Assembly (NCBI GenBank): GCA_019090295.1
Contig: JAHRWG010000372.1
Span: 1 to 14,468, forward strand
Length of the DNA stretch: 14,468 nt
Source of the DNA: Cycloclasticus sp.
Lineage (GTDB): Bacteria; Pseudomonadota; Gammaproteobacteria; Methylococcales; Cycloclasticaceae
Direction: 5' to 3'
The translations under genes were made by a program, and so were the position numbers. The stretch's first letter is position 1. Every line of letters begins with the position of its first letter. Of the stretch, positions 1,624-14,468 are shown piece after piece. The notes beneath the pieces were generated by a model that worked only from the letters and a program-made list of their open reading frames with translations, was not told the DNA's origin and ran no database searches.

Positions 1624-2727
1624 CTAAGCAGCCCCCTGAGCATTAAAAGATTCGATTTTAGACTTTTTTCTCCTCTTAATGTATTCAACAGTTTTCACTT
1701 CAAACAATACGTAACTAATGTAGGAAACGAATATTGCTAAAACAAGACTAAAAATAAAAAACAAGAAAAACGCCCCATAACTACCAAATAAATCAACCCT
1801 GTTTGCAAATATTCTTTTAGTGCCAAACATTATAGGAGTATGCCAAACATAGAAGCTGTAACTAATAGTGCCAAAAAACTGCATCCACTTCCATTTAAGT
1901 AACATTGTTGCGGCAGGTGACTGAAGAGCGATTTCAATAAATATCAAATAACCTAACACTACACTAAAAACCCAAAGAAGAACTAATTCAGTTTTGGAAA
2001 TAGAAATATCCAAACTTTCGTGAAATTGAATAAAAAATAACACACTTAAAAATGCCAACAAAGAAACGAAAAATACCTTCGGCAGACGAAACACCTTACG
2101 CACATCATTTTTCAAATAGAAATATATTCCTACACCTACGACAAAAAATAGTGCTCTAGGATACACTGCTAGAAAAGGAATCACGCCAAAAATAACAAAT
2201 AATGATATAGCAACTCTACTCGATTTAAAAAATTTAAAATAAGACAAAGATATGTAAAAAACAGCCTCGTAACTCAACGACCAAGCCACAACTAACGCTG
2301 CTTCAATGGGATACACACCTGGCACGAAAAGTACGTTAATTACCAGCAAGGCAACCCACTCACCCCATGACACACCTGAAAAGTATGCATAACCAGCGAA
2401 TGGCCCCAAGATAAAAATTAGTAATACTACAGGCAAGAAAACTGGGTACAACCGCACACACCTATCCCACAGAAAGGAAGATACGCTAGCATGCCGAATA
2501 ATACTGTCGGTCACTATATATCCACTAATCATAAAGAATATTTCAACTCCATATTGCCCAGACAGCAGAATATTCTTAAAGATAAGCAGTTCGGTCGGAA
2601 TATTAACGAAGTATTTTTCAGTTATTCCCGCTATTCCTATATGGCTAAGAAATACCATAAAGGCAGCCAATCCCCTAGCTCCATGTAGAGATAAATTAAT
2701 TTTTTTTATTTTCGGATCGTCGTTCAT
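1624..2727 (-). CDS. Acyltransferase-3 (OafA/NodX-type) membrane O-acyltransferase
   Basis: This is an integral membrane protein of about 367 residues with roughly ten hydrophobic segments. Family motifs are in order: LHGARGLAAFMVFLSHIG near the N-terminus, with the conserved Arg and His; FFMISGYIVTDSI; DRCVRLYPVF; and AWSLSYEAVFY. Members transfer acyl groups, often acetyl, to sugars of O-antigen, capsule or exopolysaccharide across the inner membrane, so it probably O-acylates the repeat unit made here. The frame is open 18 codons further upstream (to 2781), overlapping the polymerase gene. I chose the ATG at 2727-2725 because GGGAAG lies 7 bases upstream and the domain starts just after it; the gap to the polymerase stop is then 25 bases. 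The upstream region contains a 16-base exact copy of sequence from the start of the polymerase gene. Acyl donor and acceptor cannot be told from sequence. Confidence 0.9.
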   Translation of the reverse strand: MNDDPKIKKINLSLHGARGLAAFMVFLSHIGIAGITEKYFVNIPTELLIFKNILLSGQYGVEIFFMISGYIVTDSIIRHASVSSFLWDRCVRLYPVFLPVVLLIFILGPFAGYAYFSGVSWGEWVALLVINVLFVPGVYPIEAALVVAWSLSYEAVFYISLSYFKFFKSSRVAISLFVIFGVIPFLAVYPRALFFVVGVGIYFYLKNDVRKVFRLPKVFFVSLLAFLSVLFFIQFHESLDISISKTELVLLWVFSVVLGYLIFIEIALQSPAATMLLKWKWMQFFGTISYSFYVWHTPIMFGTKRIFANRVDLFGSYGAFFLFFIFSLVLAIFVSYISYVLFEVKTVEYIKRRKKSKIESFNAQGAA

Positions 2728-2752: not shown

Positions 2753-4108
2753 CTAATTAATACGCCTTCTTGATGGCACAAAAATTTTTAAAAACAACGC
2801 CAACGTTAGCAAAGACGGATACACTCCTGAAGACGTTATTGCGACTACTGGTGAAAACAAGATCAATACAAAGTACAATATGCATATGTAGAGGTCAAAA
2901 AAATGCATCTTTCTCAGGTATCTGACCCAATAATAAGAACCTATTATAGATATAAAAAATATTGCGACACACCCACCCCAATATCCAAAATCCAAATAAA
3001 AGGCTCCAGCCAAAGTAAAATAAACTCCTGGATTAACGATTTCATCTAATATTTGCTGTATTGTTATTAGATCCAAGCCCATTTTATTTAGTAAAAGTGT
3101 CTGCAGGTAGCATTGGTATGCCAAAAAATAGGGCGCATTCAAGGGGTATGAAGCTCCAAATAGGATGTCAAACTGGTACATTGCATGACCAATATAATAT
3201 TGAAAAAGCGCAACCACAAAGTACAAAGGAATGAGTTCAGGAACCTCCAATAAAAATGCCTTATGCTCATGAGTCATAGACACCCCACTTAAATTATTGG
3301 AAATAACTCCCAATAAAGCTATAAAATCGCCCCCCCCCCCTATAGCTCTGTTAATAAAAATCATTGAAAATATGTATATTATCGAGAATATAAAAATCAC
3401 TTTCGCTATCGTACTCAAAAAGCTACTCTTTGCTTTAAATACTTTGAATAATTTTTTGGATGACCTATCAAAAGGCCTTCGTTCAAATGAATTAGCACTT
3501 CCGCATAATCTATAAGTAACGTATACAACGACTAGGGCTATCGCTGCGACAAACCGCCCACCAGACAAGAATGAAGTAAATAACCCTAGCACAAAAACCA
3601 CATTCAGCAGCCTTCTTTGGCTAGGTTTTAACTCACGATAAAAATAAACTTTATAAACATAGGAAATGATAAAAAAACCTGACAATGCCATACCCAAAAC
3701 ACCAGATATAGTTCCTCCTTTAACTTCACTAGAGTCACGCCCCCTAGAAAGCCTTAGGTCAGTAATATTTGCAAGTGAAAATACCTCTCCCCCCATTAAC
3801 ATTAAAAACTTATAAATCAGTAATGCAATCGACACTATGGATAATAATATTAGCCAATTCGCTCTAACATTAGTACTTCTATAAGCATATACTGGGCGTT
3901 CCGTTACAGTAACAAAACGGAACATCAATGGCCCCAAAATAGTCCCCAAAAAAAAAGACGTGAAATAGAGCAATAAATATAAGCTCGCTTCGACCGACAC
4001 GCCATCAAAGGTAAGCAAAGAAAACTCTCTTACAAACAACACCCCCCCCCAAGAAGCCAACAATACTATTGAAGGTGCAAAATATAAGGCTATACCCTTA
4101 CCTTTCAA
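2753..4108 (-). CDS. wzy: Wzy-like oligosaccharide repeat-unit polymerase
   Basis: This is a 451-residue, strongly hydrophobic protein with about ten to twelve predicted membrane segments and one larger loop in the C-terminal half. An SGGRFVAAIAL segment near residues 180-190 resembles the SG-R element in oligosaccharide repeat-unit polymerases. Length, topology and position beside the flippase and acyltransferase genes fit Wzy, which joins lipid-linked repeat units on the periplasmic face of the inner membrane. Wzy proteins are very divergent, so context carries much of the call. The start is a TTG at 4108-4106, with GGGAAG 8 bases upstream, inside the end of the preceding gene (11-base overlap). 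The gene carries unusual G runs: G9 at residues 20-23 and G11 near residues 257-260, plus G6 at 3789-3794. The frame is open as given (ON state); loss or gain of one G would truncate the protein, suggesting phase variation. Confidence 0.8.
   Translation of the reverse strand: MKGKGIALYFAPSIVLLASWGGVLFVREFSLLTFDGVSVEASLYLLLYFTSFFLGTILGPLMFRFVTVTERPVYAYRSTNVRANWLILLSIVSIALLIYKFLMLMGGEVFSLANITDLRLSRGRDSSEVKGGTISGVLGMALSGFFIISYVYKVYFYRELKPSQRRLLNVVFVLGLFTSFLSGGRFVAAIALVVVYVTYRLCGSANSFERRPFDRSSKKLFKVFKAKSSFLSTIAKVIFIFSIIYIFSMIFINRAIGGGGDFIALLGVISNNLSGVSMTHEHKAFLLEVPELIPLYFVVALFQYYIGHAMYQFDILFGASYPLNAPYFLAYQCYLQTLLLNKMGLDLITIQQILDEIVNPGVYFTLAGAFYLDFGYWGGCVAIFFISIIGSYYWVRYLRKMHFFDLYICILYFVLILFSPVVAITSSGVYPSLLTLALFLKIFVPSRRRIN
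3330..3340 (-). repeat. G11 homopolymer inside the polymerase gene
   Basis: Eleven consecutive C on the plus strand are read as G11 in the coding strand, giving four glycines followed by Asp. Gly is encoded only by GGG/GGC here although the neighbourhood is AT-rich. The tract length is in the range known to slip during replication in phase-variable genes of other bacteria. With 11 residues the frame is open. Confidence 0.9.
4042..4050 (-). repeat. G9 homopolymer near the 5' end of the polymerase gene
   Basis: Nine consecutive C on the plus strand (G9 in the coding strand) encode Trp-Gly-Gly-Val at residues 20-23. It lies within the first membrane segment, so a one-base slip would abolish nearly the whole protein. 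Confidence 0.9.
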
Positions 4109-5312
4109 AAGGAATACTTCCCTTTAATATCTCTTCAACAAAAACATAAGGATCTGTGATAGATATCAATTCCCCTTCCCGTTCAATTATCTCTGGATGA
4201 AGATCCATTGCTTGCCGGTAGTATTGTTTCTCGCAAAAAAGCTCTATTTTTTTACCGTTAACCAAGGCTTCAATACCCGCAGTCCCCGTCCAACACCCAA
4301 CCACGTCAATATGCTCCAATAATGACGTGGTAGCGACAAAGGGATCAACCAGTACAACTTTAGGGTTGGCCTTTAAATTCCTGTAAAAAGCGCTGCTATT
4401 ATCAAAAACTGTCGCTGGGTGCTCCTTTAAGATAATCTGTTCATACCGCTTAGACAACTCATCCACTTTACATCGAAGCATATCTTCAAATTCAACTAAA
4501 TTGGAATTACCACTCCAGTATTCAACGGTCGCCTCTGGAAAATAATGAAGCGGTATCAATATTGACTTTTTGGCAAAATTCAAATCTTCAATCGATGTAA
4601 AATGCCTTTCCACAAAAAAATTCATGAACTGCCGAACGGTAGTATTATAAGGAGTAGCAAGAAAATCATACTCGCTTCGCTTAAGTATTTTTGCGGCAAA
4701 CAAATAGAAAATCAGGTACCGGGCCTTATACTTAACATACCGAATTACCGCTGCCTTTAGCGCCTTCATCCGATTGGGCGCCATATGGGATCTGAAATTG
4801 TTTTGCAATTTTTCAAGAACACCATCAACTTCCGTTTTTTCGGGGATTCTATGAGGGTTATGCTCTCCATACACAGTCAATCGTTTATATCCAGAAACAA
4901 AAAAACTAGAAACACCATGGCAAGGTATGGCTTCTTTATTAGCTACCTGTATAAGTATATCCATAATATAGTTATCAACCGGATATATCACTACCGCATC
5001 AAAAGCATTATTCCGGAATACATCCAAGAGATTACCAACAGCTCGGCGTATCAGAACAAGGCAGCGTTTAAACGGTGTATTTCTCAACACGCGATCACGA
5101 AAGATAATATTACGCAGATCTAAATTCTGCTCCACAAAGGATTGAGTTTCTGCACAAAAATCCCAACGAGTATCATTCATGTTTATGCGAAAATCGCCAT
5201 TAAAATACTCAGAAATCGTTACTAAGGATTGAGTTGGTAAGCTTTTTTTTGCGTAATCAAGCACTACCTTATCAAAAACCTTGTTACGCCGGATGTAAAC
5301 TAGAGTACGCAT
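4098..5312 (-). CDS. Putative GT-B / capsule-synthesis-like glycosyltransferase
   Basis: This is a 404-residue soluble protein with no signal peptide. The N-terminal half (about 1-150) looks like a Rossmann-like domain, and a basic hydrophobic stretch sits near residues 185-210. The C-terminal half has PLHYFPEAT (about 254-262), KEHP (296-299) and GTAGIEALVNGK (343-354). This order of a PLHYxPE motif, an HP motif and a G-T-x-x-x-E-A-L-x-x-G loop resembles capsule polysaccharide biosynthesis proteins and GT-B enzymes that use CMP-activated acid sugars. In the relatives I recall the residue before PE is Gln; here it is Phe. It is therefore a candidate for the transferase using the CMP-nonulosonate made by the neighbouring module, which is inference. 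The ATG at 5312 has AGGTGA 6 bases upstream, 10 bases after the flippase stop. Its stop overlaps the polymerase gene. It could instead be an unrelated GT-B enzyme. Confidence 0.6.
   Translation of the reverse strand: MRTLVYIRRNKVFDKVVLDYAKKSLPTQSLVTISEYFNGDFRINMNDTRWDFCAETQSFVEQNLDLRNIIFRDRVLRNTPFKRCLVLIRRAVGNLLDVFRNNAFDAVVIYPVDNYIMDILIQVANKEAIPCHGVSSFFVSGYKRLTVYGEHNPHRIPEKTEVDGVLEKLQNNFRSHMAPNRMKALKAAVIRYVKYKARYLIFYLFAAKILKRSEYDFLATPYNTTVRQFMNFFVERHFTSIEDLNFAKKSILIPLHYFPEATVEYWSGNSNLVEFEDMLRCKVDELSKRYEQIILKEHPATVFDNSSAFYRNLKANPKVVLVDPFVATTSLLEHIDVVGCWTGTAGIEALVNGKKIELFCEKQYYRQAMDLHPEIIEREGELISITDPYVFVEEILKGSIPFER
4112..4127 (-). repeat. 16-bp exact direct repeat, copy 2 (polymerase translation-initiation region)
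   Basis: Identical to 2730-2745. Here the sequence lies inside the last codons of the 404-residue transferase gene (LKGSIPFER) and supplies GGGAAG 8 bases before the TTG start of the polymerase. Confidence 0.85.
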
Positions 5313-5322
5313 TTATTTTCAC

Positions 5323-6513
5323 CTAAGATTCGCGAGTTACCACGCGCAATCTGTAACAAATATAGCAAAATGAGCAAACAGAAAACAAAAGGAATAAACC
5401 GTATGTTTTCCCCAATAACAAATAGTACCCGTCATTACTATTCAGCGGCACCACAAAATTTAATGATACTGACACTATCAATGAAACAAGCATCATACCC
5501 GCCATAACATTTACACTACCAAGATACAAATGGGCTGAATTCACGGACGCAAGCACACTCGCAAGCCCAAATAGAGAAACCATCAGAAGAGTGGTTTCAA
5601 ATACTAACTCATAACCATAAAAAGACTCAGCTATATAAGCAAAAATAAGGCTACAAAAGCCAATCACCACATAGAGAATAAAACACTTCTTTAAAGAACT
5701 AAATATTTTTTTCTTTAGTATCTCATATTCATTTTGATCCTTTCCAAACTCAACAACATTCACATATGAGAAGGTTGTAATCGCCACTACCGTCAACTGC
5801 ATTATTGAAAAAGAAAGCGAATAGTCTCCCAAAAAACCTGGAAACTCTTTTTTAACTGTGAAACGGTCTATGTAAAAAAAGAGAAATATCATTGCAGTCG
5901 AAATATTCAAAACAAAACCAGATCTAATATTCTGTACGTAATTTAATATTAAAACATTGAATGATGCTGGCGCACCAGAGCCAACATCACTTTTTATATC
6001 TAACACGTAATTTATAATGACAAAATAAATTAGTAACGCAATACAAAAAGAAATCAGCACAAAATATTCGACTAGCATCGAATCCAATAATATAACAGGC
6101 AGACAAAGGATAAGAACCAAAGACAATACTGGTTTAAAAGACATAGCCAACAAGTATTTTTCCCTCGCTTTAACTACTGTTTCTAACACCATTGCAACAA
6201 TTGCAGTAAACGACAGGGCAGCAAAAATCCAATTATCAAAGAACATGGCAAGCGCAGCTACTAACGAAGCATGTAATAACGCGCCTACAACGAAACCATA
6301 CGTTAGTTCGGACCTACTGAAATTTGACTCCTTTAAAGAGGTAACAAGATAACCAGTACCGGAACCCATTAGTGCAAATTGAGCTAAAAAAGCTGTATAC
6401 TTCAGAAATTCGACTTCCCCGTATACCTCCTTCGGTAAAAAGAAGGGCAGCACCAGAGCCTCTATACCAAGAATGCCAAATAAAAAATATCTACCTGCAA
6501 TAATTTCAATCAT
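5323..6513 (-). CDS. wzx: Wzx-like polysaccharide flippase (MOP/MATE superfamily)
   Basis: This is a 396-residue integral membrane protein with about twelve hydrophobic segments evenly spread and short polar loops, as in the polysaccharide-transport branch of the MOP superfamily. The N-terminal part (GRYFLFGILGIEALVLPFFLPKEVYGEVEFLKY) has the pattern of helix 1 followed by a P-x-x-Y/F-G-x-x-x turn common in Wzx proteins. It probably flips undecaprenyl-linked repeat units across the inner membrane. At 396 residues it is at the short end for Wzx. The frame has no alternative start upstream before an in-frame TAA, so ATG 6513 stands, although no strong ribosome-binding site precedes it. The 101-base gap to the upstream nucleotidyltransferase gene is one of two larger gaps in the operon and separates the sugar-synthesis genes from the assembly genes. 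Confidence 0.8.
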   Translation of the reverse strand: MIEIIAGRYFLFGILGIEALVLPFFLPKEVYGEVEFLKYTAFLAQFALMGSGTGYLVTSLKESNFSRSELTYGFVVGALLHASLVAALAMFFDNWIFAALSFTAIVAMVLETVVKAREKYLLAMSFKPVLSLVLILCLPVILLDSMLVEYFVLISFCIALLIYFVIINYVLDIKSDVGSGAPASFNVLILNYVQNIRSGFVLNISTAMIFLFFYIDRFTVKKEFPGFLGDYSLSFSIMQLTVVAITTFSYVNVVEFGKDQNEYEILKKKIFSSLKKCFILYVVIGFCSLIFAYIAESFYGYELVFETTLLMVSLFGLASVLASVNSAHLYLGSVNVMAGMMLVSLIVSVSLNFVVPLNSNDGYYLLLGKTYGLFLLFSVCSFCYICYRLRVVTRES

Positions 6514-6614: not shown

Positions 6615-7655
6615 TTAAACGCACTTATACGACATCAAATCTTCAGTCGCCTTCTGAAGATCTTCAACCTTACCGATATCGACCCAATAATCGTTAAGCC
6701 GCAAGGTGGCACAAGAAAACTCTCTATCCATTAAAGATTCAAATAAGGTAGGCATGTCATAGAACCCTCCTTCTGGAATATATTCTAACGCTTCTGGTTG
6801 AAGCACATAAATGCCGGCATTAACATCAAAACTCAAACTTGGCTTTTCATTGATGCTAGTAATTACTGAATCGGCCCCGGAATATACAACTCCATATGGC
6901 ACCTGATATTCATATTTTCTTACACACATAGTAGCCATGCAATTTTTCAACGAATGAAAGTCTAATAACTGAGAGAAGTCAAAATTTGTTAGCACATCCG
7001 CATTAATTACAAAAAATGGCTCGTTGAGCAAAGTGCGATCAATCAAACTCAGAGCGCCGGCAGTTCCCAATCGTTTGTTTTCAACCACGTAATCAATCTT
7101 TACTCCAAATTCTCCTCCGTCACCAAAGTGACTTTGTATGACTTCTTTCTTATAGTTCAAGCAAAATAGAAACTTGTAAAATCCTTGATCCCTAAACTGT
7201 TCAACTAAATGCTGCAACATAGGCCGATCACCGACAACCAGCATTGGTTTTGGCGTATTTATTGTCAAGTCCCCCAATCTACTTCCTAGCCCTCCAGCCA
7301 TAATCACAACAATATTGTCTTTTGATATGAACTCAACATCATCTAACGAAAAAACAGATTTTAAAATATTATTTTTATCAACAAGGGGCATATGTCGCCG
7401 ATGCATACGACGCAACATTGTTGAAATACTTTCTGGGTGCGCATCACATAACATTGTAACTGGTTTTTTATTTATAACCGAATCCAGTGAGTGCTCATTC
7501 CTCAGTATTGCTCGCCTTAAATCGCCGTCGGTCAAAATCCCTTTCAGTTCACAAAACTCATCTACAAACGCGACGAAACCTATACCGCCCTCGTCAAGCG
7601 CTTGCACCGCATCTTTTAACGTGCTATTCGGTTTAATTACGAACGCATGCTTCAT
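6615..7655 (-). CDS. CBS-domain sugar nucleotidyltransferase (PtmE-like)
   Basis: The 346-residue protein has two parts. Residues 1-112 form a CBS pair (FVDEFCELKGILTDGDLRRAIL and a second repeat ending MPLVDKNN...VFSLDD). Residues 113-346 form a nucleotidyltransferase domain with MAGGLGSRL and TPKPML (119-139), KRLGTAGAL (194-202) and the metal-binding NAD (Asp220). This architecture matches PtmE of the Campylobacter legionaminic pathway, which makes the GDP-activated glucosamine that feeds the route. By analogy it may supply GDP- rather than UDP-linked precursor to the dehydratase here, but nucleotide specificity cannot be read from sequence. The ATG overlaps the neuA stop by four bases (ATGA). 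CBS pairs often sense adenosyl ligands, so allosteric control is possible. A generic glucose-1-phosphate-type nucleotidyltransferase role is the alternative. Confidence 0.85.
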   Translation of the reverse strand: MKHAFVIKPNSTLKDAVQALDEGGIGFVAFVDEFCELKGILTDGDLRRAILRNEHSLDSVINKKPVTMLCDAHPESISTMLRRMHRRHMPLVDKNNILKSVFSLDDVEFISKDNIVVIMAGGLGSRLGDLTINTPKPMLVVGDRPMLQHLVEQFRDQGFYKFLFCLNYKKEVIQSHFGDGGEFGVKIDYVVENKRLGTAGALSLIDRTLLNEPFFVINADVLTNFDFSQLLDFHSLKNCMATMCVRKYEYQVPYGVVYSGADSVITSINEKPSLSFDVNAGIYVLQPEALEYIPEGGFYDMPTLFESLMDREFSCATLRLNDYWVDIGKVEDLQKATEDLMSYKCV

Positions 7656-8329
7656 TTTAACTTCCCCATTAAAAATCCAGCATATTCAAAATCTTCAATT
7701 GTATCGATATCCACAGATCGATTTCTTGGCATCAGGTAACAATAGCTATTTTCCGAATAATACAAACGCCTTTTTATAAGGTCATATTGAAATATATATA
7801 TTGCTCCGTTAGGAAAAACAGTTGGCCGTGTATCTTGTCTGTTTTTCAAACTTTCCTCAAAAATATTCTCAAACCTCCCATCTGGCATCACATACTTATG
7901 CCACGACAATGGGTGGCACTCCTCACAATAACTAACAACCGAGTCAGCCGACTTTATTCTAAATAGCTCTATAGCTGAATCAATATCAGCGGCTGTACGC
8001 AAGGGAGAGGTGGGCTGCAAAACAACAAATGAAGCAGTATCAAGGCCATGTTCCATATGTAGCCTATCTAACGTATACAAATAATTATCCACTGCAAGGG
8101 AGCTGTCTTCGGCTAGCTCCTTAGGCCGCAAAAAAGTATCCTTTACGCCTAAACTCAACGCCACCTCATATATTTCTGGATCATCCGTAGAAACTATCAC
8201 TTCAGTGATATATTTTGATTTACAAGCAGCTTCGATTGTATAAGCGATCAAGGGTTTACCATGTAGTTCTTTAATATTTTTACCTGGCAGCCCCTTTGAC
8301 CCCCCCCTAGCAGGGATAATCGCAATCAT
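7652..8329 (-). CDS. neuA: CMP-nonulosonate (N-acylneuraminate) cytidylyltransferase
   Basis: This 225-residue protein has the NeuA/LegF/PseF family signature. PARGGSKGLPGKN at residues 6-18 binds CTP and is followed by GKPLIAYTIEAA, STDDPEI and the LQPTSPLRTAADID motif. It transfers CMP from CTP to a nonulosonic acid so that a glycosyltransferase can use it. It is a short cytidylyltransferase without the extra C-terminal domain of some NeuA proteins, as is usual for LegF/PseF types. The ATG at 8329-8327 overlaps the neuB stop by one base (TAATG), and its own stop overlaps the next gene by four bases. The conserved P-loop-like motif is encoded by a G8 run, a possible slippage site. Whether the substrate is Neu, Leg or Pse type cannot be decided here; neighbours favour the legionaminic type. 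Confidence 0.92.
   Translation of the reverse strand: MIAIIPARGGSKGLPGKNIKELHGKPLIAYTIEAACKSKYITEVIVSTDDPEIYEVALSLGVKDTFLRPKELAEDSSLAVDNYLYTLDRLHMEHGLDTASFVVLQPTSPLRTAADIDSAIELFRIKSADSVVSYCEECHPLSWHKYVMPDGRFENIFEESLKNRQDTRPTVFPNGAIYIFQYDLIKRRLYYSENSYCYLMPRNRSVDIDTIEDFEYAGFLMGKLK
8300..8307 (-). repeat. G8 homopolymer in the nucleotide-binding motif of neuA
   Basis: Eight consecutive C on the plus strand, G8 on the coding strand, encode Arg-Gly-Gly-Ser of the conserved PARGGSKG motif. The residues are fixed by function, but the choice of consecutive GGG codons is not. Confidence 0.8.
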
Positions 8330-9384
8330 TAAACGATATCATCCTTAGTTAAAACATGATCGAAGCCACAATCTTTATTTAGCTTCATTCCTATTATAAA
8401 ATCGGTCATCCCTGGTGCAATACCAGTCCCTGGGCGCTTATAATCTATATCTTCCATGCAGATTACTTCCCCTTTTTTCTTTGCTTTCGTAAGAACAACA
8501 CTTCTCCTAAACTCTGCTTTTTTCTCATCTGACTCCGAAGCCGTAATACGGAAACTACCCAAAGCATCGTTAATTCGTTTCACTCCAGTTACGATAGCAA
8601 GCAACTCATCACTATTTGCTGAAACCTTATGGTCCCAACCTTCCATATTTTTGTCTAGAGTAAAGTGTTTCTCAATAATACAAGCTCCCATCGCCGCTGA
8701 TGCAAGTGGAATATCGATACCCGATGTATGATCAGAAAAGCCTACCGGATAATCCGGGTAGCATTCCATTAGTGTTTTCATATTATTTAAATTCACATCG
8801 CTATCTTCGGGAGGGTACGTTGCAACACAGTGTAAGATAACAATCTGCCTGTTACCCGCCTCCTCTATAACTTTCACTGCCCTGTCTATCTCATATAACT
8901 CACTTAGACCTGTTGATATAATCATCGGCTTTCCCTTCCTGGCCAAATAATCTAGGAAGGGATAGTTATTAAGATCCATTGAGGCCACCTTTATAAAAGG
9001 TGCGCTCATTACGTCCACTAAAAAATCTGCCTCGGCCTGACAAAACGGTGTGGACATGCAATCAACACCCAGTTCATCGGCATATTCCTTCATTTGTAAC
9101 AGCTCACTTTCTGAAATTGAGTAGGCATCAACAATCTCTTCCAATGTATAATCTGATCTATCCCTATAATCATCCGCAATAAAGTAATTTTCTTCATACT
9201 TTACTCTTGCAAATAACGTATCTTTAGACCAACTCTGGAATTTCACGCAATCCGCTCCTGATTCCTTTGCTGCCAAAATCAGCTTTTTTGCTAATTCCAT
9301 ATCACCGTTATGGTTCGAGCCTAACTCTGCAATAACATAAGGTTTACAAAAATTAAACAACTCTTTCTTCGTTGTTAGCCTCAC
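8329..9384 (-). CDS. neuB: Nonulosonic acid synthase (NeuB/LegI family)
   Basis: The family condenses phosphoenolpyruvate with a six-carbon N-acyl sugar to make a nine-carbon nonulosonic acid. The TIM-barrel domain shows YVIAELGSNHNGD, KLILAAKESGADCVKFQSW, ISTGLSELYEID, VGFSDHTSG and IIEKHFTLDKNMEGWDHKVS. A C-terminal SAF/antifreeze-like domain (EFRRSVVLTKAKKKGEV to the end) closes the active site of the partner subunit. The frame is open to a GTG at 9426, inside the preceding gene. I chose the GTG at 9384-9382, because AAGGAG lies 8 bases upstream and the resulting 351 residues fit the family length. The gap to the glycosyltransferase gene is then 14 bases. The family fixes the reaction type, while the exact sugar depends on the upstream enzymes. 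Confidence 0.93.
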   Translation of the reverse strand: MRLTTKKELFNFCKPYVIAELGSNHNGDMELAKKLILAAKESGADCVKFQSWSKDTLFARVKYEENYFIADDYRDRSDYTLEEIVDAYSISESELLQMKEYADELGVDCMSTPFCQAEADFLVDVMSAPFIKVASMDLNNYPFLDYLARKGKPMIISTGLSELYEIDRAVKVIEEAGNRQIVILHCVATYPPEDSDVNLNNMKTLMECYPDYPVGFSDHTSGIDIPLASAAMGACIIEKHFTLDKNMEGWDHKVSANSDELLAIVTGVKRINDALGSFRITASESDEKKAEFRRSVVLTKAKKKGEVICMEDIDYKRPGTGIAPGMTDFIIGMKLNKDCGFDHVLTKDDIV

Positions 9385-9392
9385 AGATAATA

Positions 9393-9398
9393 CTCCTT
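9393..9398 (-). promoter_or_regulatory. Shine-Dalgarno site that decides the neuB start
   Basis: On the coding strand AAGGAG lies 8 bases before a GTG at 9384. The alternative in-frame GTG at 9426 has no such element and lies within the upstream gene. Confidence 0.75.
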
Positions 9399-10262
9399 TT
9401 AAATAATTTGCATTTGTTCCCACCACAAAGGGTGATCAATAGTTTTTTTTGATTCGATTATTTGAAGATATGCTTTACGAGCATTCTCATCAGAAAAATA
9501 ATCTTCAAGTCGACTAAAGGCAACATAAAAATTAATATAACGATCGTCAACCATTGCTAATTTCTGGTAATGAAGTCGTTTCACAGAAAAATGTTTTTCC
9601 ATATTAGATGCTGACAAACAAGATAGCCCTACGGTATTCTTCTCATGCTGACGGTAATAAGTGACCGCCTCATTGGTAAAGCACGCTCTCAACCCACTCA
9701 GCAACAACCTAGAAAAAATATACCAATCAATTGCCACAAGATTTTTATCAATAGACATTAATTCGCTATCAACTCGTTCAAAATTAATCGCCGTGTTTGA
9801 TAGACCAAACAGGTTTTTTTCCAGTATATCATCAATAAAAATCTCTACTCTATTATCGAACCTACAAGATAGGTAATTTTTTTCACCGAAATAATCCACA
9901 CCGCCAACCAAACTTAAGTCATTAACCACCACATCATATTCAAGCAAATATTTTAATGAAATTTCGATTCTATTATTTGAAAACCTATCATCTGAATCAC
10001 CAAGTATAACTTTCGAGTAACTACTAGTAAGTAAATACTGTAGGCCAAATTCTCTAATTTGAGCGGGAGTTTTATCAAAAACAGGGATTTCAATTAAATT
10101 GATTTCTTTGCATGCTCTAATTAAGGAGATATCCACATCACCATCATTCATCACAACCAAATCAAACAACTTAAATGTTTGATTTCTTATCGACAAAAGA
10201 AAATCAGAAAGAAATGGCTCGCAACCAGGATACACCACCGTAAGAAAAGCAACTTCTTTCAT
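9399..10262 (-). CDS. GT2-like (GT-A fold) glycosyltransferase
   Basis: This 287-residue cytoplasmic protein opens with VAFLTVVYPGCEPFLSDFLLSI, followed by VVMNDGD (about 36-42) and ILGDSDDRFSNNRIE (86-100). That is the layout of a GT2-type domain with a DxD-like acidic motif for metal-bound nucleotide-sugar. The C-terminal half ends in a Pro-Leu-Trp-Trp-Glu stretch. It probably adds one sugar to the lipid-linked repeat unit. It sits between the formyltransferase and neuB genes, where a LegG/NeuC epimerase often lies in related clusters, but nothing in its sequence resembles the epimerase fold. The ATG overlaps the formyltransferase stop by four bases and has GGAG about 10 bases upstream. Donor and acceptor are unknown. 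Confidence 0.75.
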   Translation of the reverse strand: MKEVAFLTVVYPGCEPFLSDFLLSIRNQTFKLFDLVVMNDGDVDISLIRACKEINLIEIPVFDKTPAQIREFGLQYLLTSSYSKVILGDSDDRFSNNRIEISLKYLLEYDVVVNDLSLVGGVDYFGEKNYLSCRFDNRVEIFIDDILEKNLFGLSNTAINFERVDSELMSIDKNLVAIDWYIFSRLLLSGLRACFTNEAVTYYRQHEKNTVGLSCLSASNMEKHFSVKRLHYQKLAMVDDRYINFYVAFSRLEDYFSDENARKAYLQIIESKKTIDHPLWWEQMQII

Positions 10263-11152: not shown

Positions 11153-12292
11153 CTAGATCACCACGCTACTAGGAATATTTACCAACCGCTCTTCCAGCCA
11201 CAATGCATCACTTAGATCCCCGGCGAGACAATCGGCAAACATATGCAGCCTACTCATCAACACCCACGCCGGCCGCGTCATAACACCATTTTCGTTTGTT
11301 AGCTCTAAGAACTTATCACGCGTCGCCCTATCGGGAAGGATAAGTGTATTTAGCCAATAATTTGCTTTACAGCCTTCGCCCTCTAAAACAAAGCTAATAT
11401 CACTTTTTGAAAAAAACTCCTTATACTTTTCTGCTAACTCTCGCTTTCGTTCTAAAAACACTGGTAATTGCTCCAACTGTGCACAACCTAGTGCGGCATT
11501 TAAGTTAGGCATTCGGTAGTTAAATCCAATCTGATCATGCATATATTCCCATTTATGCTGGACTTTGGCTGTTGTAGTAATATGTTTGGCTCGTCTTGCA
11601 AGCGCTTCATCATTAGTAACAATCATTCCTCCACCCCCAGAGGTAATGATTTTATTTCCATTAAAACTAAACGCCGCCAATGCCCCGAAAGTCCCCGTAT
11701 GCTGGCCTCGAAACAGGCTTCCCAAGGACTCAGCAGCGTCTTCCACTAAAGCAATACAGAAACGCTCACAGACTGCTTTCAAACCATCAATTTCTGCCGG
11801 ATGTCCGAAGGTATGCATCGGAACGCAAGCTCTAATGACACGTCCAGATACCTTATTAACACACTGCCCTCCTTTTATTTCAGAAAACTCCTCCAACCAG
11901 GCCTGCAATTTGACAGGAGACAAACCCATGGTATTCCGATCCACATCAATAAATACTGGCTGTGCGCCACAATAATTAATAGCATTACAAGTAGCGACAA
12001 ACGTCAGAGGCTGAGTGATGACCTCATTATTTACCTCTACCCCAGATAGCAGCAGCGCAATGTGCAACGCTGACGTTCCATTCACTGTGGCTATTGCATA
12101 TTTAGCACCAACAAACTCCGCAAACATCCGCTCCAGCTCATCAACATAATTACCAACACTTGAAACATATGTGCTTTCAATGGCATCCAACACATAGCGC
12201 TTTTCATTCCCGGCAAATATTGGGGCATGAAGAGGGATAAAGTCTTTTGTTTGGTAAGTGTCGCGAACAAATTCAACAAATTGAGAATACAC
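11153..12292 (-). CDS. legC: LegC-family PLP-dependent sugar aminotransferase
   Basis: This is a DegT/DnrJ/EryC1-type aminotransferase that converts a 4-keto nucleotide sugar to a 4-amino sugar using glutamate and PLP. Visible elements, numbered from the chosen start, are DFIPLHAPIFAGNEKRYV near the N-terminus, VEDAAESLGS with the PLP-contacting Asp (about 185), and SFNGNKIITSGGGGM with the Schiff-base Lys (about 214). The FNGNK form and IPLH...GNE opening are typical of the LegC branch. The frame is open to a TTG at 12316, but the GTG at 12292 has GAGG at a 5-base spacing and gives 379 residues with a family-like N-terminus. The gap to the dehydratase stop is then 7 bases. The substrate is probably the 4-keto product of the preceding dehydratase. 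Confidence 0.9.
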   Translation of the reverse strand: MYSQFVEFVRDTYQTKDFIPLHAPIFAGNEKRYVLDAIESTYVSSVGNYVDELERMFAEFVGAKYAIATVNGTSALHIALLLSGVEVNNEVITQPLTFVATCNAINYCGAQPVFIDVDRNTMGLSPVKLQAWLEEFSEIKGGQCVNKVSGRVIRACVPMHTFGHPAEIDGLKAVCERFCIALVEDAAESLGSLFRGQHTGTFGALAAFSFNGNKIITSGGGGMIVTNDEALARRAKHITTTAKVQHKWEYMHDQIGFNYRMPNLNAALGCAQLEQLPVFLERKRELAEKYKEFFSKSDISFVLEGEGCKANYWLNTLILPDRATRDKFLELTNENGVMTRPAWVLMSRLHMFADCLAGDLSDALWLEERLVNIPSSVVI

Positions 12293-12299
12293 GGTCCCC

Positions 12300-13487
12300 T
12301 CACATTTTGCTGTCAAGGTATTTCCCCACTTCTTTATGATTAAAATCCGGAATCATCCTGAAAAATAACTCGATAATCTGGTCTTTTGACCAAGCTCTGT
12401 TTGCTTTTAACTTGGCTACAGCTAACTCGAACTTTGTCAGCAAATCATTGTCATATGCAGCTTCAGCTTTAATAACTCCTATGTTCTCGAAACGAGCCAT
12501 ATCAAGGGTTTCTTTATCGGTAAAAAATTCCTCAAAACTTTTTTCCCCCGTAGTATCACTGGTAGTAAATAGACAGGGCCACTTGCCTTGTTGCGGCAAA
12601 GACTTAGCTAAACTTCTTGCTTCATCTTCTGAATGACATAGATAGGGTACATAATCGATTTGTTCTAAATATTTTACTGCTATATCAGAAAAAGTGGTCA
12701 AATGGAGAGACTCACTCAATTTTGGGAAGAATATATCGCGGTTATCGCCAAAGATGCATGACATCAAACAAAGCTCACCAGATTCCTGTGGAGTGATAAA
12801 GTAGCGTTTAATATCTTTAGGTGCCACTATGGGTTGGAGCTTTTTAATTCGCTGATCAAAACCATGTAACAAAGATCCATCTGAAAAAGCCACGTTTGCA
12901 AATCTTGCGGTCGAAATCGAAATCTCTTCGCTACGACGCATTAAAAACATCTCCATAATTCTTTTTGATGCGCCCATCATATTCACCGGATTTGCTGCTT
13001 TATCCGTTGAAACACAAAAATACTTTTTCACCCCACTATCAATTGACTGTTTGATAGTTTTATCTGTATTAAACACATTCACATCAATCATACGCATAAG
13101 AGTGAATGAATCTTTCTCGCTACGAACGTGCTTTAAAGCTGATAGGTTTAATACGTAGTCATATTGGCCATCAGCCTTAATAAAAGCATCATATTCCACT
13201 GAGCCTATATCTAATGCAAATGTTTGGAAATCTCCCTCAATATAGCCAAGGGAACTACGGATATCTCGAACTAACTCAACCATATTGTTTTCACTGATAT
13301 CAACAACATGAAGCTTTTTAGGCTGGCGCTTGAATATCGCCTTGGTAACAGCTTGACCAATGGAGCCTGCCCCACCGAGGACCAAAAAAGACGATTGTGA
13401 AACAACATCACATAACTCAGCGTCATGTATGCTCATGTCGCCAAAAAATAAATGTCTATCTCGGCCTATTAAATTTAATATATTCAT
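12300..13487 (-). CDS. Nucleotide-sugar 4,6-dehydratase (soluble FlaA1/LegB-like extended SDR)
   Basis: This 395-residue extended short-chain dehydrogenase/reductase has the NAD(P) motif GGAGSIG (about 38-44), LNLSALKHVRSEKD, and VSTDKAANPVNMMGASKR (about 159-176). It converts UDP- or GDP-GlcNAc to a 4-keto-6-deoxy sugar, the first committed step before the aminotransferase. The catalytic Tyr of the YxxxK signature is replaced by Met (MGASK), as in the large membrane-bound dehydratases WbpM/PglF, yet this protein has no N-terminal membrane domain. An in-frame GTG two codons upstream is part of the ribosome-binding site (GAGGTG), so the ATG at 13487 is the start, with a 5-base spacing. It is the first intact gene of the module after the scar at the right. 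Stereochemistry and nucleotide preference are not visible. Confidence 0.88.
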   Translation of the reverse strand: MNILNLIGRDRHLFFGDMSIHDAELCDVVSQSSFLVLGGAGSIGQAVTKAIFKRQPKKLHVVDISENNMVELVRDIRSSLGYIEGDFQTFALDIGSVEYDAFIKADGQYDYVLNLSALKHVRSEKDSFTLMRMIDVNVFNTDKTIKQSIDSGVKKYFCVSTDKAANPVNMMGASKRIMEMFLMRRSEEISISTARFANVAFSDGSLLHGFDQRIKKLQPIVAPKDIKRYFITPQESGELCLMSCIFGDNRDIFFPKLSESLHLTTFSDIAVKYLEQIDYVPYLCHSEDEARSLAKSLPQQGKWPCLFTTSDTTGEKSFEEFFTDKETLDMARFENIGVIKAEAAYDNDLLTKFELAVAKLKANRAWSKDQIIELFFRMIPDFNHKEVGKYLDSKM

Positions 13488-13544
13488 TATCACCTCAAAA
13501 AACTGGCGCTAACATATCTGCTTAACGTAGTGAAATTTTAACTG

Positions 13545-13950: not shown

Positions 13951-14094
13951 AGGAGGAGACCATATACGCGAAGTACTTTGAATACAATGCCGATCAGGAA
14001 TTGGAAACCTGCGCTCAACAGATTTATGATTGAATTTGAAGAGCGTCGAATGGATTATATTTAACCTTAGCAGTTACATAGAATTATTTTTACA
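13951..14094 (+). mobile_element. IS256-family remnant: transposase 3' end and right terminal sequence
   Basis: On the plus strand, codons ending at the TAA of 14062-14064 read TMPIRNWKPALNRF followed by MIEFEERRMDYI. This matches the C-terminal end of IS256-family transposases (W-x-x-A-L-N-x-F-x-I-x-F-E-x-R). Sequence upstream of about 13981 is less clear. After the stop, CAGTTACATAGAATTATTTT and a following run to about 14094 resemble an IS256-type terminal repeat. Everything else of the element is missing, so it is inactive. The adjacent wzz gene terminates inside this putative end. The family call comes from recalled motif similarity. Confidence 0.7.
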
Positions 14095-14468
14095 TCCTCT
14101 TACAGGCTCCTTTTCATTTATAAAAAAATTCCTTAAGAATACCCACATTATTCCAAGCATTCCGCCCAACAAAACAGCCAAAACACAAATTTGCGCCCTT
14201 TTTGGTTTATCTTTTAATTCTGGCACAGTCGGCGCATCAATTATTTTTAACACATACTGCTCACGAATTTCCGCTAGCATTTTAGTTTTAGTCTGCGCCT
14301 CTATCAACTCATAGAATATTTTCTGCATCTCTGCAAGCGGTGTTTGCTCAAGCTTTGCTTTAAGATAACCAATACTTTTTTCTGCTTCAGAAATATCCTG
14401 CCGACGCATATGCTGATTAATATCTTCGACAAGCCACTGTACCCATTGCTGCGCGATATAAGGTGATA
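14074..14468 (-). CDS. wzz: Wzz-type polysaccharide chain-length regulator, C-terminal part, cut by window edge
   Basis: About 131 codons are visible; the start lies beyond the right edge. Reading in, the protein shows SPYIAQQWVQWLVEDINQHMRR, a coiled-coil-like helical stretch, EIREQYVLKIIDAPTVPELKDKPKRA, and a membrane segment AQICVLAVLLGGMLGIMWVFL. The Pro-rich lead into the second transmembrane helix is the hallmark of Wzz. Wzz sets the modal length of Wzy-polymerised polysaccharide at the inner membrane. The last residues (GCKNNSM) are encoded by sequence that looks like an IS256 end, so the natural C-terminus has probably been replaced by an insertion, apparently without harming the membrane helix. 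It is probably the first gene of the cluster or close to it. Confidence 0.9.
   Translation of the reverse strand, partial: SPYIAQQWVQWLVEDINQHMRRQDISEAEKSIGYLKAKLEQTPLAEMQKIFYELIEAQTKTKMLAEIREQYVLKIIDAPTVPELKDKPKRAQICVLAVLLGGMLGIMWVFLRNFFINEKEPVRGCKNNSM

What the first reader, a model, noticed from the sequence alone, without database searches (positions are those of the whole stretch)
3330..4050. Two long G tracts (G11 and G9) in the polymerase gene suggest phase-variable polymerisation
In AT-rich DNA, an 11-base and a 9-base G run in one gene are far beyond chance (by rough composition arithmetic, well under one G9 is expected in a window this size). Both are in frame as written, so the gene is ON; a one-base slip at either would truncate the polymerase. 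Poly-G contingency loci are well known for surface sugars in Campylobacter and Neisseria, but two in a Wzy gene of this kind of bacterium would be notable. The expected outcome of OFF cells is short or single-unit polysaccharide.
Basis: partly seen in the sequence, partly recalled or inferred. Interest (0 to 1): 0.75.

Follow-up and report, generated by a model that had tools for sequence, protein, structure and literature searches.

The report
Slippery G runs in polysaccharide polymerase gene
A marine bacterium's surface-sugar polymerase gene contains two long runs of the letter G that could let copying slips switch it off and on, but no length variation could be observed and such runs are common in its relatives' ordinary genes.

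Summary
The tracts are real: G11 (3330-3340) and G9 (4042-4050), both in frame on the coding strand of a Wzy-like polymerase gene (2753-4108, minus) in a nonulosonic-acid/surface-glycan locus of a Cycloclasticus-like marine MAG. They are the only G>=9 runs found in the 2.15-Mb assembly, and a non-triplet slip at either meets a stop within 2-11 codons. But "far beyond chance" is not borne out: the genome's own G-run spectrum (25 G7, 8 G8, 1 G9, 1 G11) shows no excess. What is odd is that both long runs share one gene (P about 7e-4 for this genome, about 0.08 over the genus). In sister species G9-G10 runs sit in frame in tsaE, cdsA-type, recG and ftsK genes, and MutS is intact, so G9 alone is not a switch. 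G11 is the better candidate: the only tract >=10 deep inside an ORF among 55 genus tracts, encoding a tetraglycine that 0 of 23 homologues share; all 4 in-ORF tracts >=11 lie in surface/glycan genes. No length variant was found, but only one other record exists, and it is identical. Phase variation is plausible, unproven, and would be a new instance of a known kind.

The parts
2753..4108 (-). Wzy-like polysaccharide repeat-unit polymerase gene (451 aa, TTG start, overlaps the upstream glycosyltransferase gene)
   Evidence: ORF; TIGR04370 E=7.6e-8, 31.7 bits, below the 40-bit cut-off; 24 of 24 alignment members, itself included, match TIGR04370 at E <= 0.01; AlphaFold model pLDDT 82.1 whose best solved neighbours are RodA and WaaL
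3330..3340 (-). G11 tract, codons 257-260, tetraglycine in a predicted loop between helices 230-256 and 263-271
   Evidence: none of 23 homologues has GGGG there
4042..4050 (-). G9 tract, codons 20-23, in the first predicted long helix (11-28)
   Evidence: GG at this site in 1 of the 18 homologues with residues there
4098..5312 (-). Glycosyltransferase (capsule-synthesis type), overlaps the wzy start; its relatives often share contig lengths with wzy relatives
   Evidence: PF05159 E=3.1e-9
5323..6513 (-). Probable flippase (Wzx-like), inferred from its hydrophobic sequence and position only
   Evidence: no hit in Pfam, NCBIfam or PHROGs
1624..2727 (-). Membrane acyltransferase (possible glycan O-acylation), next gene after wzy
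   Evidence: PF01757 E=4.8e-26; start at the ATG seen
7652..8329 (-). CMP-nonulosonate cytidylyltransferase-like gene; carries a G8 run at 8300-8307
   Evidence: PF02348 E=6e-24; PseF 153.7 bits, below cut-off 205.7; run
8329..9426 (-). NeuB-family nonulosonate synthase
   Evidence: PF03102 E=7.7e-80
11153..12316 (-). LegC-family aminotransferase
   Evidence: TIGR04181 543.4 bits, over cut-off 420
12300..13493 (-). Polysaccharide-biosynthesis NAD-dependent dehydratase
   Evidence: PF02719 E=2.7e-45

Best explanation
The gene encodes the Wzy-like polymerase of a surface polysaccharide that probably contains a nonulosonic acid, caught in its in-frame (ON) form. The G11 tract, and much less the G9, is a slippage-prone site. 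When replication adds or drops a G that is not corrected, translation ends within 2-11 codons, giving a peptide of about 25-35 or 260-271 residues without the conserved C-terminal half. The cell then carries unpolymerised (single-unit) glycan until a second slip restores the frame. Shown: the tracts, the frame, the early stops in the other frames, the family resemblance and locus, the predicted loop position, the non-conservation of the tract-encoded residues. Inferred: that slips happen at a useful rate in a MutS-bearing cell, that they reverse in nature, and that switching is favoured (for example by phages that bind the polymer).
For: Only two G>=9 runs in the assembly, both in this gene. 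Early stops in both other frames: after 3 and 11 codons past G9, 2 and 11 past G11. The G11 residues are shared by none of 23 homologues (the columns read GDDE, GDSE, GSED etc.) and lie in a predicted loop, so no conserved motif imposes the run. Among 55 G>=9 tracts in 17 genus genomes, the G11 is the only one of length >=10 lying deep in an ORF: it starts at codon 257, while the other four in ORFs start at about codons 9, 11, 22 and 36 of the ORFs as called. All 4 in-ORF tracts >=11 are in surface/glycan genes, against 6 of 19 classified tracts of 9-10 (4 unclassified ones left out): one-sided Fisher P = 0.024; 0.042 with paralogues collapsed; 0.088 with paralogues collapsed and this gene left out; all post hoc. 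Of these 4, one has an uncertain start (GT2, L072) and one lies 31 bases from a contig end (L061). Context: in C. jejuni the phase-variable tracts are mainly G9-G10, with SSR indel rates of 1e-4 to 1.6e-3 per division (PMC8355987, passages); in N. meningitidis homopolymers of 8 or more were predominantly variable (PMC5084427, passages).
Against: No length variant or OFF allele was seen: the protein search returned only the identical protein and homologues of 54% identity or less, although products of a slip at G11, or restarts after G9, would fall within its length range (only the 8000 candidates sharing most words were scored). MutS1 is full length in this genome, whereas C. jejuni lacks functional mismatch repair (PMC8355987). 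G9-G10 runs are tolerated in frame in tsaE, cdsA-type, recG, ftsK and nine other housekeeping-type genes of sister species. Run numbers match the genome's decay curve. A single close pair in the genus is not very improbable (P = 0.083).
Confidence: 0.45

Rival explanations
1. Accidental, mutation-prone tracts without an evolved switch: an accessory, probably horizontally acquired surface gene with frequent GGG codons happens to hold long G runs. They occasionally slip and break the gene, but there is no selected reversible switching. This is the category that a 2025 review gives for the 7C tract of meningococcal siaD.
For: Run numbers fit the genome's geometric decay. GGG is 54 of 223 glycine codons in the other window genes. 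G9 runs are widespread in genus genes of many kinds. MutS present. No wzy homologue at E <= 0.001 in the 60 other genomes, nor at E <= 1e-10 in the 368 others (a sample of the class, partly the same genomes), so it is an accessory gene. siaD example read in passages of PMC11868660.
Against: Two long runs in one gene, P about 7e-4 in this genome. The G11 is longer than any tract found in the 13 housekeeping-type ORFs of the genus (longest there G10).
Confidence: 0.38
2. Neutral, stable protein-coding runs: the glycine codons reflect protein evolution and codon use, mismatch repair keeps the lengths fixed, and nothing switches.
For: Both tracts in frame; the identical protein is listed on a much longer contig; one homologue, P0018, also has GG at the G9 site; in-frame G9-G10 in housekeeping-type genes of sister species.
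Against: The tetraglycine is shared by none of 23 homologues; P(run >=11) with the protein fixed is 0.014 and P(two >=9) 0.001.
Confidence: 0.14
3. Assembly or sequencing artefact in tract length.
For: The source is a fragmented assembly (375 contigs, 80.9% complete), homopolymers are error-prone, and one genus assembly (G015) does carry suspicious poly-G contig ends.
Against: Both lengths preserve a 451-aa frame with homologues over its whole length, and a second record gives the identical protein.
Confidence: 0.03

Closest known systems
Poly-G contingency loci of Campylobacter jejuni (surface-glycan genes)
   Same: G9-G11 tracts inside surface-glycan genes; frameshift on slip
   Different: C. 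jejuni lacks functional mismatch repair and has multiple phase-variable genes with measured rates (PMC8355987, passages); here MutS is present, one gene holds all G>=9 runs of the assembly, and no variation was measured
N. meningitidis siaD 7C tract ('accidental' mutation-prone tract)
   Same: A G/C run in an acidic-sugar capsule gene that can break it by slippage
   Different: siaD's run is short and such runs are common in that genome, about 40 loci (PMC11868660, passages); this G11 is the longest G run found in its assembly
Reversible excision of wzy in Salmonella Typhimurium DT8/DT30
   Same: Population heterogeneity in Wzy and so in polymer length, proposed to help recovery after phage predation (PMC12074656, abstract and passages)
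   Different: There by deletion that needs a flanking direct repeat and regain by transfer; here a proposed frameshift
Salmonella opvAB and glycosyltransferase phase variation of O-antigen
   Same: Chain length or decoration switched, phage protection (named in PMC12074656 passages)
   Different: Different genes; that opvAB is controlled by methylation is recalled, from no call

Membership tests
Simple-sequence-repeat phase-variable (contingency) gene | Homopolymer of at least about 8 G/C in the ORF or promoter | tested here: met
   G11 and G9
Simple-sequence-repeat phase-variable (contingency) gene | A one- or two-base slip changes expression | tested here: met
   By reading frames only: stops within 2-11 codons in both other frames after each tract; expression itself not measured
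Simple-sequence-repeat phase-variable (contingency) gene | Tract lengths differ between strains or reads | tested here: inconclusive
   One other record, identical; no homologue in 60 relatives or 368 other sampled class members; reads not available
Simple-sequence-repeat phase-variable (contingency) gene | Reversible switching detectable without selection (about 1e-5 or more) | not testable with these tools
   Needs culture or deep reads; criterion from passages of PMC11868660
Simple-sequence-repeat phase-variable (contingency) gene | Tracts beyond the genome's chance expectation | tested here: inconclusive
   Number not in excess; co-location P = 6.6e-4 own genome, 0.083 genus-wide
Wzy-type repeat-unit polymerase (TIGR04370) | Profile score over the curated cut-off | tested here: not met
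   31.7 bits against 40, though 24 of 24 alignment members, itself included, match at E <= 0.01, best 2.7e-17; so called Wzy-like, not filed as a TIGR04370 member
Wzy-type repeat-unit polymerase (TIGR04370) | Polytopic membrane fold of the lipid-linked glycan polymerase/ligase kind (SEDS, WaaL) | tested here: inconclusive
Wzy-type repeat-unit polymerase (TIGR04370) | Lies in a glycan locus with sugar-synthesis genes, glycosyltransferases and a flippase | tested here: inconclusive
   LegC, NeuB, CTP_transf_3, PF05159 and acyltransferase genes found; the flippase had no family hit

The most novel reading that the evidence does not exclude
Mismatch-repair-bearing, Cycloclasticus-like marine bacteria carry a small set of poly-G/C contingency loci aimed at surface glycans and surface proteins: wzy here (G11+G9), pseB (G9, encoding VGGGET where a sister pseB has VGARVT), a NanM-like sugar O-methyltransferase in a pse cluster (G9), a GT2 glycosyltransferase (G11), and in one species a family of PARCEL/DUF285 surface proteins with C6, C9, C11 and C24 at the same site before the signal peptide. 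These would let populations hedge against phages or hosts in the sea.
Probability: 0.22. Interest if true: 0.62.

Novelty: new member of a known kind. Interest (0 to 1): 0.4.

Why it matters
[quoted passage not shown] A slippage-switched polymerase in a marine Cycloclasticus-like bacterium (hydrocarbon degraders, recalled) would bear on that directly and would link polymer length to phage pressure in such communities. As it stands it is a testable lead, not a demonstration.

Tried and rejected
Genome-wide excess of long G runs: rejected, counts follow the decay curve. G9 as evidence by itself: rejected after finding G9-G10 in housekeeping-type ORFs of sister species. Finding other copies of wzy: relatives (1 of 61 matched, itself), a sample of the class (1 of 369 at E <= 1e-10, itself) and named genomes (3 loci at 46-50% identity, longest G run 5 in each) gave no near copy. 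Looking for records of the upstream glycosyltransferase where wzy might be broken: at 100% only one protein is listed, with the same 357,515-bp contig length. A fold-level identification beyond RodA/WaaL: no solved structure matches by sequence at E <= 0.1; the plain Foldseek PDB search could not be queued. The promoter/terminator scan gave no more sites than shuffles. The first guess at the organism (SAR92) was wrong; a paper search on it found nothing. Papers: Cycloclasticus with phase variation gave one paper, on Alcanivorax, seen as a listing only. Searches (listings) showed no poly-G phase-variable Wzy in the titles or abstract starts listed; the H. parainfluenzae Wzy paper (PMC3989065, passages) makes no such claim in the passages seen. 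These searches cover open-licence papers only and do not show absence from print.

Full report
What is there. The window is the whole contig C328 (14,468 bp) of an assembly of 2,153,436 bases in 375 contigs, 80.9% complete. The Ffh protein of the same genome has unnamed hits up to 100%, and its nearest named hits in the listed 120 are Cycloclasticus sp. and Piscirickettsiaceae at about 86-87% identity, so I call it Cycloclasticus-like; the label rests on that one protein. The contig carries a minus-strand glycan locus: a Wzz-like fragment at 14074-14466 (resemblance recalled, not tested), a PF02719 dehydratase, a LegC-family aminotransferase over its cut-off, a formyltransferase, a NeuB-family synthase, a cytidylyltransferase, a CBS/nucleotidyltransferase, a probable flippase (no family hit), a PF05159 glycosyltransferase, the polymerase, an acyltransferase and an oxidoreductase.

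The tracts. The G9 lies in the first long helix (residues 20-23); the G11 encodes a tetraglycine at 257-260, in a predicted loop between helices 230-256 and 263-271 (mean pLDDT 69 for residues 251-260). Of 23 homologues none has GGGG at that loop (at most two glycines); at the G9 site 1 of the 18 with residues there has GG. After either tract the two other frames stop within 2-11 codons. A slip at G11 would remove the second half, where 16 of the alignment's 23 invariant residues lie.

How unusual. In this assembly these are the only G>=9 runs. The spectrum of exact lengths is G7 25, G8 8, G9 1, G10 0, G11 1; a geometric tail predicts 2.9 runs >=9 and 0.23 runs >=11. So there is no excess in number. 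What is unusual is where they are: both in one gene (P = 6.6e-4 within 712 bp), and 4 of the genome's 35 runs >=7 in this 14.5-kb contig (expected 0.235, Poisson P = 1e-4). Both figures are post hoc: across the genus 0.087 such close pairs are expected (P = 0.083). Holding the protein fixed and redrawing codons gives P = 0.014 for a run >=11 and 0.001 for two runs >=9.

The genus as a control. I listed G>=9 tracts in 18 genus genomes (its pattern misses runs that touch a contig end, such as one on G016:C66 seen). G015 was set aside before counting because its contigs look contaminated or artefactual (poly-G contig ends, microsatellites); one of its in-ORF tracts, in a 5-FTHF cyclo-ligase gene, was family-scanned but is not counted. 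The other 17 genomes hold 55 tracts: 39 G9, 8 G10, 5 G11, 2 G12, 1 G24; 3 of the 17 have none. I count 27 of the 55 as lying in or at an ORF longer than 80 aa or in a gene fragment that I translated: the two in wzy and 25 others. My assignment of those 25: 13 housekeeping-type (thiolase end, GDH, HlyD, SPOR/AAA, PhaC-like, TsaE, enoyl-CoA hydratase, CheD, MCP, CTP_transf_1 (cdsA-type), FtsK, RecG, CorA; 12 G9 and one G10); 8 surface or glycan (GT2, PseB, NanM-like methyltransferase, sulfatase, autotransporter, three DUF285/PARCEL proteins); 1 PAS-GGDEF gene whose frame is broken at the tract; 2 judged by eye to lie upstream of the true start; 1 unassigned fragment. The remaining 28 lie in no ORF or only in ORFs of 80 aa or less, which I took as non-coding. 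Thus G9 in frame is ordinary here. The four in-ORF tracts >=11 are all surface or glycan (wzy, GT2 near an uncertain start, two DUF285 N-termini, one of them at a contig end), against 6 of 19 classified tracts of 9-10, the 4 unclassified left out: Fisher one-sided P = 0.024, or 0.042 with paralogues collapsed, or 0.088 with paralogues collapsed and wzy left out. The grouping was made after seeing the data. The G11 of wzy is the only tract >=10 deep inside an ORF; the other four in ORFs start at about codons 9 (FtsK), 11, 22 and 36.

Do tracts change length in this genus? Three hints, none decisive. In G016 four DUF285/PARCEL surface genes carry C6, C9, C11 and C24 before the signal peptide, all in frame; other DUF285 genes of that genome lack a run there (L170) or have cut or unclear N-termini (L169, L171). 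The C24 is 31 bases from a contig end, so its length is doubtful, and four of four in frame is not what random OFF states would give. In G004 a PAS-GGDEF gene is interrupted at a G9; the 91%-identical orthologue in G013 is open and has no run of 6 or more there. In G001 pseB a G9 encodes VGGGET where G008 pseB has VGARVT without a run.

Mechanism and verdict. The anatomy is what a slippage switch needs, and the G11 is the plausible working part. Against it: MutS1 is full length in this genome (over the cut-off in 16 of 18 genus genomes), no OFF or variant allele was found, and wzy has too few records to look for polymorphism: one other, identical, on a 357,515-bp contig whose independence from this assembly I cannot judge. 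The review literature separates evolved phase variation from 'accidental' mutation-prone tracts such as siaD 7C by rate and reversibility (PMC11868660, passages); neither could be measured here. I give 0.45 to a slippage switch that works in nature, 0.38 to an accidental mutation-prone tract, 0.14 to a stable neutral run and 0.03 to an artefact. If it switches, it is a new member of a known kind in an unexpected host.

Noticed in passing
L173 (G016:C52), L172/L075 (G016:C59), L091 (G016:C74), L168 (G016:C50): Four DUF285/PARCEL-repeat surface-protein genes of one genus member carry C24, C11, C9 and C6 runs just before the signal peptide, all in frame; the DUF285 family was found in only 1 of 18 genus genomes.
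   Followed up: partly
L101 and L136 (G004:C21 near 44091), L137 (G013:C77): A PAS-GGDEF diguanylate cyclase gene is split at a G9 tract; the 91%-identical orthologue in G013 is open and has no run there.
   Followed up: partly
L087 (G001:C20), L078 and L094 (G008:C8): G9 runs in pseB and in a NanM-like sugar O-methyltransferase gene of pseudaminic-acid clusters, the latter near a pilB-like gene (label recalled); the tract residues in pseB are not shared by the sister pseB.
   Followed up: partly
window 8300-8307: A G8 run encodes the glycine pair of the RGGSKG stretch in the cytidylyltransferase gene of the same locus; that this motif is conserved is recalled.
   Followed up: no
It suggests a mobile two-gene module.
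   Followed up: partly
G015 contigs C104, C131, C165, C169, C193: Poly-G contig ends (up to G36) and microsatellites, mostly without long ORFs, in a genome held as 99% complete; likely contamination or read artefact.
   Followed up: no
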